In this document: piece after piece, positions 16,834 to 20,121 of the stretch
How the letters are laid out: each line of letters begins with the position of its first letter
How positions within the stretch are numbered: position 1 is the stretch's first letter
Assembly: GCA_014378995.1 (NCBI GenBank)
Contig: JACMMP010000130.1
Coordinates: 26,602 to 90,601, forward strand
DNA: 64,000 bases
From: Hyphomonadaceae bacterium
Lineage (GTDB): Bacteria > Pseudomonadota > Alphaproteobacteria > Caulobacterales > Aquidulcibacteraceae
Direction of reading: 5' to 3'
Made by a program: the position numbers and the translations under genes
Notes under the pieces: generated by a model
Database searches by the model: none
What the model was told of the DNA's origin: nothing
The model's input: the letters and a program-made list of their open reading frames with translations, nothing else

Positions 16834-16886
16834 GCTGGCCTCGGCGGCGTCGGCGGTTATGTTTCGCGAGTCGAGTGGGGAGCGGG

Positions 16887-17453
16887 ATGCGCCGGTTTGC
16901 TTTGATCATCGCAGCTTTGCTGCTGAGCGCGTGCGGGGCGCGCGAGGATTCAACCCTGAACGAAAGCGCCTGCGCCCGCAGCGCCACACGCGAAATTGCA
17001 TGGACGCAAGGTGAGGTTGCGGATGTGATCACAACGAGCGCGCAAGGTCCGAGCTGCGCGCAGGCGGTGGTGACGTTCGTCGCCCGCAACGCGGCGGGCG
17101 ATCCGCTCTGGGCGTTCGCATCGACTTATTACGACATGACGGTGGGTGGCGTGGCGCCGGAAGGCGCGCCCGCGGTGACGAACGAACAAATGGACACGTT
17201 CCTCACCTCATGGGCCGATGCCACGGCCTCCCGCACCGGCGGCTTGCCGCAATGGCGCGAGGGCGTGCCGACGCTGACACAAAGCGCGACGACGTTTGCG
17301 TATGACACGCCGTTCGAGCGTGAGACCTATGAGATGCTGCGGGCGCGCGATTTGCCGATGATCTGTTACGCCGCGGCGGTCGAGGCGACGCAGTGCCTGA
17401 TCGTCGATCCGGCTTCGAATGCGCCGACCATGATCGTGGCGTACGGGCCGTGA
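16887..17453 (+). CDS. putative lipoprotein, tandem family member 1
   Basis: Lipobox LLLSACG; Cys pattern shared with next two ORFs. Confidence 0.8.
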   Translation: MRRFALIIAALLLSACGAREDSTLNESACARSATREIAWTQGEVADVITTSAQGPSCAQAVVTFVARNAAGDPLWAFASTYYDMTVGGVAPEGAPAVTNEQMDTFLTSWADATASRTGGLPQWREGVPTLTQSATTFAYDTPFERETYEMLRARDLPMICYAAAVEATQCLIVDPASNAPTMIVAYGP

Positions 17454-17971
17454 AGCGCCTGGGGATTGCTGCGCTGATGGTTCTGCTCTCGGCATGTGGG
17501 CGCGAAGCGCCGGCGACGAGTTGCGATCTCTCGGCGACGCAGGAGATCAGCTTCACCAACGCCGACGCGCCCGACACGCTGGTGGTTCAGTCACTCGGGC
17601 CCTCCTGCGACAAGGCAATCGGCCTCATCACGCTGCGCACCGCAGAAGGCTACCCGGCGTGGTCGTGGAGCGGCCCGCTATCGCACCGTTTCGGCGATGC
17701 GTTTGGCGCCGAGGATTACGAGCACATGCAAACTTTCCTTGAAGCTTGGTCGCGGCCGGACATCGCCACCACGCAATCGGCGCCTGCCTGGACTGCGCTC
17801 ACCAGCGGGCAGACGACGCTCGATCAACTCACATATGAAGACGTGCGGGTCCGCAATTTGCCGATGTTGTGCCACTTTTCAGGAACAGCACGGCAGACGT
17901 GCGTGTTTTGGGAGCCAGCGGCGGGTGGCGCCGGCCATTTGCTGGAACGCGACACGCAGGAGAACGAGTGA
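17450..17971 (+). CDS. putative lipoprotein, tandem family member 2
   Basis: GTG start overlapping previous stop; lipobox VLLSACG; GPSC and RNLPMLC motifs shared with member 1. Confidence 0.8.
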   Translation: MKRLGIAALMVLLSACGREAPATSCDLSATQEISFTNADAPDTLVVQSLGPSCDKAIGLITLRTAEGYPAWSWSGPLSHRFGDAFGAEDYEHMQTFLEAWSRPDIATTQSAPAWTALTSGQTTLDQLTYEDVRVRNLPMLCHFSGTARQTCVFWEPAAGGAGHLLERDTQENE

Positions 17972-18540
17972 TGAAGCTTGCTGGCTTGGCTGTGATTGTG
18001 CTCGCGCTGGCGGCATGTTCGCCGCAACAGGACGCCAAAACGGCCGAGATTCCCGCGGCGACCTCGGCTGCGCAACAAGCAGCGTGCAGTGCGGAAACGT
18101 CACGCGATTGGTCGGCGGTCGGCAGCCAGTATTATGTGATCGAAGCGGAGGCGCGGGGCGACACGTGCGCCGGAGCGGTCGCGACGATCCGCATCCGCGC
18201 ACGCGAAGGCGCCGTCCTGTTCACGCGCGACTATCCGATCGCGCAAGTGCCGCTCGCCTTCAACCCGAACAGCGATCAAACCGGTTTGCGCACAGATCTT
18301 GACGCATGGACGCAGAACACGGCGGAGCCGCCGACCGCGGACACCCTGCCCGCATGGCCCAGCGGCGCGTCGCGTCCGCCAGGCTTTGACCCGGCAGTGG
18401 GGCGCAATGCTTACGAAGCCGCGCGCGGCGCGCAGGGTCCTGTGTTTTGCTATCCGGACGGCGGCGAGAGCAATGCGTGCGTCGCCCTCGCCGGCGACGC
18501 CGCCACGTTCCTGGGCTCGCTTACGCCCGAGCGGATGTGA
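17971..18540 (+). CDS. putative lipoprotein, tandem family member 3 (divergent)
   Basis: Lipobox LALAACS; AACSAE...DTCAGAV and VFCYPDGGESNAC align with members 1 and 2. Confidence 0.75.
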   Translation: MKLAGLAVIVLALAACSPQQDAKTAEIPAATSAAQQAACSAETSRDWSAVGSQYYVIEAEARGDTCAGAVATIRIRAREGAVLFTRDYPIAQVPLAFNPNSDQTGLRTDLDAWTQNTAEPPTADTLPAWPSGASRPPGFDPAVGRNAYEAARGAQGPVFCYPDGGESNACVALAGDAATFLGSLTPERM

Positions 18541-18625
18541 GCGGCGCCAAGCGAACAGCTACCCGCATTTCGCCTCCCTGTAGCCGGTGCGCCGCACATT
18601 ACGCCTGATGCAGTTGGGATTAGCC

Positions 18626-18733
18626 ATGGCGCTTTTCAGCGGCGGCGACGCATACTATCTTTCGATCTCCGGCGGCGGGCGCCGGTTGTTTTTAAGAAAA
18701 GGAGGTGATCCATGTCTCATTGTCACTCGTTAG
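18626..18733 (+). other. candidate 35-aa mini-ORF MALFSGGDAYYLSISGGGRRLFLRKGGDPCLIVTR
   Basis: Short ORF below track cut-off; overlaps the SD and start of the next mini-ORF. Confidence 0.35.
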
Positions 18734-18780
18734 AGGCACTGTCGCAGATTTGGACCACCTTGTCGGTGGCGTGCTCCTAA
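18712..18780 (+). CDS. candidate 22-aa small protein MSHCHSLEALSQIWTTLSVACS
   Basis: ATG directly preceded by AAGGAGGTGATCC, complementary to the 16S rRNA 3' tail; hairpin downstream. Confidence 0.5.
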   Translation: MSHCHSLEALSQIWTTLSVACS

Positions 18781-18809
18781 ACGATCGCCCCGTAGGGGAC
18801 TGACAATGG

Positions 18810-18841
18810 AAGGGCCGCGGGGCGAAAGCCTTGCGGCCCTT
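18810..18841 (+). terminator. hairpin terminator
   Basis: AAGGGCCGC...GCGGCCCTT followed by TCGGTTTGTTT. Confidence 0.6.
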
Positions 18842-18896
18842 CGGTTTGTTTAGCCCACAAGCGAAGGCGTTGCCCAAAGCCGACCCGCAAAAAGAT

Positions 18897-18951: not shown

Positions 18952-20121
18952 TTAGGTTGCCGCGTCGCGCGGCGAGCGCCAGAAGCCGTAGGCCGCCAGA
19001 GCGGCCGCCAGTACGCCAGGCGTCACGATCGCGGCGGCAGCGACGATCTCGATCGTCTCGCCCGCGCCGTTGAACAGGAGCGAAGAGCCGAGCGCGACCA
19101 AGCCGAGGCCGAAGATCAGCAGCGCCGCGAGGCCGGCCTGCTCGAACGGAGCGGCGCGCCTGGCTTGCGATGCGCGGCGCATCTCACGGATACGGCGATC
19201 GACATTCAGCTCCGGCGCGACACTGACCACTTTCTCTTTGGCTTCGCGCTTGGCGAAGCTGAACAGCGGCTTGCGTTTTATTTCTTGCGCCGCGTGGGCG
19301 CGGCGCGTCGCTTCGCGCACGTTGTCGAGCGGGCGAGCGACGGGTTTGGCGTGTGCGGTGACGATCTCGTCGTCATCCTCGGCAACGTCATTGGCCACTT
19401 GCGTCAGCAGCAACGCTTCGGTTTGCGGCTCGGCCCGCAGAATTTCAGTGAGGCGCACCGCGGGCTCAAAGACGGGCGTCTCGACGATCGGTTCTGCTTC
19501 GGGAAGCGCAAATTCGAGGACGTTCGCGGCGGCGGAGGCATGCGAGCCGATGGCGACCGGCTGGAAACGCGGTTGCGCCGCAAGTCTGACTGCGGACTTC
19601 ACCGGCGCGCCCAGGATAGAGGCAGCATAGTCAAGTTTGGGGCGCTGCATCACGGAGGGGGTTGCGGCGCATGGCAGGTCTTTCAAGAACAGATTTTTTT
19701 CCGCCGCGCGGCGGCGGACGAGCAGCTCGGCGATCTCAAGTTCGCCGCCTATTTCGACTTTGCGCCAAGCGTCCATGGCGCAGGCGGCGGCGACGACATC
19801 ACCGGCGTTCACGCGCCGCAGCGTTTGGCTCTGGGCGAAGGGTTCCAGGCCGATGGAAAATGCGAACGAGACCAGCGCATCGAATTGCGATTGCGTGAGC
19901 GGTTGCGTTACTAGCGCGTTCACCACACTCTCGACTGGGGCCAGATCGAGCGAAAGCAGCTCGGTCGCTTCGTTTTGGGTCACGGCGGGGCCGCATTGGC
20001 CGACCCGCACGTGGCTGAAGCCGACGACCCAGGTTCCGTCAGGCAGTTGCGCGGGGTCGGCGCGGAAGCCTTCGTACTCTTGGATGAGCGAAAGGCCGGC
20101 AGTGGAGATGGCGTACGTCAT
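18952..20121 (-). CDS. spmX: SpmX-like protein: N-terminal GH24 muramidase-like domain, acidic linker, two C-terminal TMs
   Basis: LIQEYEGFRADPAQLPDGTWVVGFSHV...QSQFDALVSFAFSIG lysozyme-like domain; long variable linker; two hydrophobic C-terminal segments, as described for Caulobacter SpmX. Confidence 0.7.
   Translation of the reverse strand: MTYAISTAGLSLIQEYEGFRADPAQLPDGTWVVGFSHVRVGQCGPAVTQNEATELLSLDLAPVESVVNALVTQPLTQSQFDALVSFAFSIGLEPFAQSQTLRRVNAGDVVAAACAMDAWRKVEIGGELEIAELLVRRRAAEKNLFLKDLPCAATPSVMQRPKLDYAASILGAPVKSAVRLAAQPRFQPVAIGSHASAAANVLEFALPEAEPIVETPVFEPAVRLTEILRAEPQTEALLLTQVANDVAEDDDEIVTAHAKPVARPLDNVREATRRAHAAQEIKRKPLFSFAKREAKEKVVSVAPELNVDRRIREMRRASQARRAAPFEQAGLAALLIFGLGLVALGSSLLFNGAGETIEIVAAAAIVTPGVLAAALAAYGFWRSPRDAAT

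What the first reader, a model, noticed from the sequence alone, without database searches (positions are those of the whole stretch)
18626..18841. Compact locus of two overlapping mini-ORFs with full-length anti-SD complementarity and a terminator
GTTTTTAAGAAAAGGAGGTGATCC-ATG opens a 22-codon ORF (MSHCHSLEALSQIWTTLSVACS). AAGGAGGTGATCC is complementary to the entire 16S 3' tail, far beyond a normal SD. The region also encodes an out-of-frame 35-aa ORF from 18626 that spans the SD and stops inside the second ORF, small hairpins (CCACC-TTGTC-GGTGG, CCCC-GTA-GGGG), and a 9-bp hairpin ending in a T-rich tract. It is flanked by unrelated genes and invisible to ORF finders. It could be a leader-peptide/small-protein gene, a dual-function sRNA, or an RNA that binds the 30S. 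I cannot place it in a known family.
Basis: partly seen in the sequence, partly recalled or inferred. Interest (0 to 1): 0.7.

Follow-up and report, generated by a model that had tools for sequence, protein, structure and literature searches.

The report
Self-masking mini-mRNA copying ribosomal RNA tail
This is a real, roughly 180-base stand-alone RNA gene, a distant member of the unexplained Rfam family CC2171, found across Alphaproteobacteria; it carries a ribosome-binding site matching the whole tail of the small-subunit ribosomal RNA and a tiny translated reading frame that hides a partial copy of that tail, so the RNA can probably mask itself until a ribosome opens it.

Summary
A 15-base perfect complement of the 16S rRNA 3' tail (18698-18712; next longest in the window 9) opens a 22-codon ORF (18712-18780), followed by a 15-bp terminator. 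The upstream 35-aa ORF is not real: its ATG lies before the conserved -10 box and it is not conserved.

The locus is a distant member of Rfam RF01867 (CC2171, a Caulobacter sRNA of unknown function): 63.8 bits, E 4.6e-13, below the gathering score of 75. The family is class-wide, not Caulobacter-specific: my model hits 113 of 387 sampled Alphaproteobacteria and, in a separate phylum sample, three weak matches outside the class.

Comparative evidence: (i) the reading frame is kept while the peptide is only weakly constrained, so being translated seems to matter more than the product; (ii) the start region pairs with the segment before the terminator, supported by compensatory changes; (iii) the ORF contains a covarying near-copy of the 16S tail (CUGGAUCnCC) that pairs with its own Shine-Dalgarno.

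Best explanation: a self-occluding mini-mRNA opened by the 30S subunit, acting as a ribosome-responsive RNA switch. Its output is unknown. No expression data were available.

The parts
18620..18627 (+). Conserved box TTAGCCAT upstream of the -35 (regulator or promoter element, unidentified)
   Evidence: Read from the upstream regions of 21 same-genus loci
18632..18637 (+). -35-like CTTTTC (CTTGCG in some relatives)
   Evidence: 17-18 nt from the TATCTT element in same-genus loci; consensus inference, the sigma-70 scan reported nothing
18656..18661 (+). -10-like TATCTT; transcription start predicted near 18668
   Evidence: A -10-like match at nearly the same distance from the start codon in 20 of 21 same-genus loci; start site inferred
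18669..18685 (+). 5' hairpin CCGGCG...CGCCGG of the same genus; elsewhere in the class this place holds a CAACAAC leader
18689..18839 (+). Match to Rfam RF01867 (CC2171), full model 1-159
   Evidence: 63.8 bits, gathering 75, E 4.6e-13; own model R1 100.5 bits
18696..18711 (+). Extended Shine-Dalgarno GAAAAGGAGGTGATCC; perfect 16S-tail complement is 18698-18712
   Evidence: near-invariant across the class
18712..18780 (+). 22-codon ORF, ATG to TAA
   Evidence: Start, frame and length conserved across the class; peptide only weakly constrained
18717..18724 (+). P1 5' arm TCATTGTC
   Evidence: Pairs with 18802-18809 in the predicted fold; covariation
18752..18759 (+). 16S-tail mimic GGACCACC (class consensus CUGGAUCnCC), can pair with the Shine-Dalgarno
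   Evidence: Best antidiagonal of the pairing scan; covariation; duplex energies
18755..18769 (+). Competing hairpin CCACC-TTGTC-GGTGG (mimic with the ORF's 3' part)
   Evidence: Hairpin in this place favoured across the class, z -1.03 +- 0.10 against codon shuffles
18788..18798 (+). Small hairpin CCCC-GTA-GGGG after the stop codon
   Evidence: Predicted fold; not conserved as such
18802..18809 (+). P1 3' arm GACAATGG
18809..18852 (+). Intrinsic terminator, 15-pair stem 18809-18842 and T-rich tail
   Evidence: stem covaries across the class

Best explanation
The locus is a stand-alone gene for a roughly 180-nt RNA, a distant homologue of the Rfam CC2171 sRNA, which is really a self-occluding mini-mRNA. 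Shown by comparison: an extended Shine-Dalgarno complementary to essentially the whole single-stranded 16S tail; a frame-conserved 20-27 codon ORF; inside that ORF a near-copy of the 16S tail that can pair back onto the Shine-Dalgarno; a long-range helix P1 tying codons 2-5 to the segment just before the terminator; the terminator. Inferred: without a free 30S the in-ORF mimic covers the Shine-Dalgarno, and with P1 this gives an H-type pseudoknot or competing closed states. A 30S subunit with an intact 3' tail displaces the mimic because its pairing is much stronger (about -31 against -14 kcal/mol, predicted). Translation then sweeps the mimic, and the terminating ribosome at codon 20-27 together with the hairpin between the mimic and the ORF's 3' part keeps the site open for the next 30S. 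The RNA thus switches with the supply of initiation-competent 30S subunits. The output (RNA stability, P1 arm freed for a target, or 30S titration) is unknown.
For: Rfam match over the full model and family members across the order and class (3 weak hits outside the class). First in-frame stop at codon 20-27 in 164 of 173 class-wide hits while the other frames scatter. Start-to-mimic distance is a multiple of 3 in 88 of 91, but start-to-P1-arm is not (62/57/47). The pairing i+j=110 between the Shine-Dalgarno and the ORF is the best antidiagonal of the scan: 81.2% of cells paired against 76.9 +- 0.6 shuffled, at most 51% when slid, covariation score 0.293 against 0.230 +- 0.009, including C-G to G-C and A-U to G-C changes. 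P1 98% paired with compensatory changes, and different but complementary arms at the same place in several divergent members. Shine-Dalgarno with 16S tail mean -30.7, with own mimic mean -13.9 kcal/mol. Even distribution of changes over codon positions (100/116/108): translation seems to matter more than the product.
Against: No transcript, ribosome profiling or structure data were available. The predicted minimum-energy fold of the window RNA leaves the Shine-Dalgarno unpaired from the mimic and uses a competing fold, so masking may be minor. The window's own mimic has an A-C mismatch with its Shine-Dalgarno. Covariation of the masking helix leans on a few clade-level changes (mostly Sphingomonadales), and the shuffles do not correct for relatedness. 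The alignment A1 was collected with the TGTCTCATTG box, so the invariance of that box is partly by selection. Amino-acid changes are about 17% fewer than expected (100 against 120.6 +- 5.7), so the peptide is not fully free.
Confidence: 0.5

Rival explanations
1. A conventional base-pairing sRNA: the conserved unpaired or switchable segments (UCAUUGUC, CAAUGG or the G-rich Shine-Dalgarno-like stretch) pair with target mRNAs; the ORF is incidental or secondary.
For: Rfam and one Mesorhizobium survey list the family as an sRNA; codons 2-4 (UCU CAU UGU) are near-invariant at the RNA level even in GC-rich genomes.
Against: Frame conservation and in-frame mimic spacing point to translation; the near-invariant arm is already explained in part by P1, which co-changes in divergent members. 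No target was tested.
Confidence: 0.17
2. A 30S decoy: the very strong Shine-Dalgarno mainly titrates or parks 30S subunits, the mini-ORF being a way to release them.
For: Complement to the entire 16S tail, predicted -30.7 kcal/mol, conserved class-wide.
Against: Nearly always one copy per genome, so it would need very high expression; a pure decoy would need neither mimic nor conserved frame.
Confidence: 0.15
3. A small-protein gene: the 20-27 aa peptide (M/V)SHC...W...A is the functional product.
For: Start, stop and frame conserved; slightly fewer amino-acid changes than expected.
Against: Changes spread evenly over codon positions; SHC and W coincide with P1 and the 16S mimic, and divergent members encode unrelated peptides with the same RNA layout.
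Confidence: 0.13
4. A leader or attenuator of a downstream gene.
For: Mini-ORF followed by a terminator resembles attenuators.
Against: The next gene here lies on the opposite strand; nearest ORFs differ between genera (rough ORF calls).
Confidence: 0.03

Closest known systems
Rfam RF01867, CC2171 (Caulobacter sRNA)
   Same: Full-length covariance match, same order of Shine-Dalgarno, GUGUCUCAUUGUC, long-range helix and terminator; class members from other genera pass the gathering score.
   Different: Window copy is below the gathering score (63.8 against 75); genus-specific 5' hairpin replaces the CAACAAC leader; Rfam describes an sRNA, without the mini-ORF or 16S mimic found here.
Dual-function sRNAs such as SgrS/SgrT (from memory)
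   Same: Small stand-alone RNA with a short translated ORF and a terminator.
   Different: Here the peptide is hardly conserved, and the notable features are the 16S complement and the in-ORF 16S mimic.
Shine-Dalgarno-sequestering leaders, e.g. erm-type leaders and translational riboswitches (from memory)
   Same: Three mutually complementary segments (Shine-Dalgarno, anti-Shine-Dalgarno, anti-anti), with ribosome position choosing the fold.
   Different: No downstream regulated gene; the sequestered site is that of the mini-ORF itself.

Membership tests
Rfam RF01867 CC2171 | Covariance-model score at or above the gathering score of 75 bits | tested here: not met
   63.8 bits, E 4.6e-13, full model. 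Filed as a distant homologue, not a formal member.
Rfam RF01867 CC2171 | Homology shown through intermediates that do pass the score | tested here: met
   40 order genomes over the cut-off; same-family genera g8, g21, g23 and g24 pass; other class loci pass.
Rfam RF01867 CC2171 | Long-range helix from GUGUCUCAUUGUC to GACAAUGGA followed by a terminator stem | tested here: met
   Alignment, fold, covariation.
Rfam RF01867 CC2171 | Expressed as a small RNA | not testable with these tools
   No transcript data; conserved -10-like element and terminator only.
Translated mini-ORF (dual-function RNA) | Conserved start, frame and stop | tested here: met
Translated mini-ORF (dual-function RNA) | Peptide under strong purifying selection | tested here: not met
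   100/116/108 changes by codon position; 100 amino-acid changes against 120.6 +- 5.7 expected.
Leader or attenuator | Co-directional downstream gene | tested here: not met
   Next gene, a phage-lysozyme-domain protein at 18952-20121, is on the minus strand.

The most novel reading that the evidence does not exclude
A class-wide alphaproteobacterial RNA that senses initiation-competent 30S subunits: it carries both a complement and a mimic of the 16S rRNA 3' tail, so that only a 30S with an intact tail can open it, and its translation state sets the activity or stability of the RNA as a global read-out of ribosome supply.
Probability: 0.25. Interest if true: 0.88.

Novelty: new variant of a known kind. 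Interest (0 to 1): 0.62.

Why it matters
A functionally unexplained RNA family listed as a Caulobacter sRNA turns out to be spread over Alphaproteobacteria, to carry a conserved translated mini-ORF, and to contain in that ORF a covarying copy of the 16S rRNA tail. If the switch is real, it would be an RNA read-out of free, intact 30S subunits, in a class where, in Caulobacter, most genes lack a Shine-Dalgarno (75.4% of C. crescentus coding sequences, PMC4117421). It makes a direct test possible in Caulobacter and would explain why the family kept its reading frame but not its peptide.

Tried and rejected
A fragment of a 16S gene on the other strand: rejected, only the tail complement is present and Rfam finds no rRNA. 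A chance match: rejected by conservation. The 35-aa overlapping ORF: rejected. A leader of a downstream gene: disfavoured. Finding the genus's own 16S tail: three searches failed. Identifying the Caulobacter transcript's expression: the primary paper (Landt 2008) is not held; Schrader 2014 says two previously predicted ncRNAs are translated but does not name them in the main text; Table 1 of PMC5988900 could not be tied to CC2171. A literature search for the peptide sequence found nothing; RF01867 appears in two held papers only.

Full report
What is there. Window 18690-18850 holds GAAAAGGAGGTGATCC-ATG, a 22-codon ORF ending at TAA 18778-18780, and a 15-pair terminator at 18809-18842. The run AAAGGAGGTGATCCA (18698-18712) is the longest complement of the alphaproteobacterial 16S tail; the next longest in either strand of the window is 9 nt. 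The RNA folds far better than shuffles, z -5.6. The 35-aa ORF from 18626 starts upstream of a -10-like TATCTT shared by same-genus loci and has no consistent counterpart in relatives, so it is a chance ORF.

What family. Rfam at gathering threshold sees only a tRNA in the window, but at E-value threshold the stretch 18689-18839 matches RF01867, CC2171, over its whole length with 63.8 bits and E 4.6e-13, below the gathering score of 75. In the order, 148 of 299 genomes match, 40 above the score, and Caulobacter vibrioides rings as control. A DNA pattern of the Shine-Dalgarno and GTCTCATTG hits at least 120 stretches in GTDB genomes, nearly all Alphaproteobacteria of many orders: Sphingomonas, Bosea, Methylobacterium, Microvirga, Azospirillum, Acetobacteraceae and others; several of these class loci pass the Rfam score. 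My own model R1, from 69 diverse members, finds 113 of 387 sampled class genomes in 85 of 264 genera. In a phylum sample it finds three weak matches outside the class. In the held literature RF01867 is mentioned only in the Rfam 15 paper and as M. huakuii candidate MH_s33; no function is given there.

Is it translated. Among 173 hits the first in-frame stop falls at codon 20-27 in 164; in the other two frames stops scatter. The spacing from start codon to the TGGA motif is a multiple of three in 88 of 91, while the spacing from start to the 3' arm of P1, outside the ORF, is 62/57/47. So indels inside the ORF keep frame. Yet substitutions between related ORFs fall evenly on codon positions, 100/116/108, and amino-acid changes are only about 17% fewer than a spectrum-matched null (100 against 120.6 +- 5.7). 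I conclude that translation is conserved and the peptide nearly not.

RNA structure. P1 pairs TCATTGTC with GACAATGG just before the terminator; RNAalifold finds it with six compensatory changes, and the terminator stem covaries. Because A1 was collected with the TGTCTCATTG box, I also fetched weak R1 hits that were not selected for it. They keep the Shine-Dalgarno but several use other arms at the same place: ATGAGATT/AATCTCAT, CATGGTT/GACCATG, CATGAAT/ATTCATG, GTGATT/AATCAC, TTGTCA/TGACAA (the automatic pick was elsewhere or absent in the rest). They still match CC2171 weakly.

The 16S mimic. In a scan of the Shine-Dalgarno columns against the ORF columns the best antidiagonal pairs GGUGAUCCAG with CUGGAUCNCC, which is the 16S tail sequence CUGGAUCACC with one free position. 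With fixed structure 81.2% of cells pair against 76.9 +- 0.6 in shuffles and at most 51% when slid; covariation 0.293 against 0.230 +- 0.009. The number of pairs with double changes alone is not above shuffles (258 of 500), and the changes are concentrated in a few clades. By duplex energy the best site in the ORF lies 34-44 nt after the start in most members, mean z -1.04 +- 0.09. The predicted pairing of the Shine-Dalgarno with the 16S tail is -30.7 kcal/mol on average, with the mimic -13.9. Two same-genus loci with a diverged 3' half still carry GGATCACCTCC or GCGCCTCCTTT downstream of the start.

Mechanism. Shown: the parts and their conservation. Inferred: closed state by Shine-Dalgarno with mimic and P1; opening by a 30S whose tail outcompetes the mimic; maintenance of the open state by translating and terminating ribosomes. 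The minimum-energy fold of the window RNA does not show the masking helix, which is the main computed point against. The output is unknown. Rivals are a base-pairing sRNA, a 30S decoy and a small-protein gene.

Surroundings. Upstream are lipoprotein-like ORFs without Pfam family, downstream a minus-strand phage-lysozyme-domain protein. Similar neighbours flank the locus in two other species of the genus. Between genera the nearest ORFs differ (a rough ORF caller), so the gene stands alone.

Limits. 16S of the genus could not be read. No expression data. Related sequences are not independent in the shuffle tests.

Noticed in passing
L255 (G002:C109) 6829 onward and L258 (G002:C55) 59-174: In one same-genus genome the 5' half of the element (with a replaced 3' half MSHVSAEGMRLL, GCGCCTCCTTT and a terminator) and the original 3' half lie on different contigs with the usual neighbours on either side, as if something inserted at TGTCTCAT; no integrase was identified.
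   Followed up: partly
L026 (G006:C45) 1490-1720: Diverged copy at the same locus: 14-codon ORF, no CAATG arm, but an exact 16S-tail stretch GGATCACCTCC downstream.
   Followed up: partly
L199 1489-1784 and L198 1196-1535: The CC2171-like RNA lies about 50-100 nt upstream of the SRP RNA gene on the same strand in two genomes of one family; in L186 a tmRNA lies about 1.2 kb away.
   Followed up: no
window 18620-18627: Box TTAGCCAT conserved upstream of the promoter in most same-genus loci; possible regulator site.
   Followed up: no
window 16875-18540: Three consecutive, similar-looking lipoprotein-like ORFs without Pfam family.
   Followed up: no
downstream of the element in L003, L006, L007, L010, L015: Minus-strand lysine/alanine-rich (histone H1-like) reading frames follow the terminator in several same-genus loci, absent in the window (by eye).
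   Followed up: no
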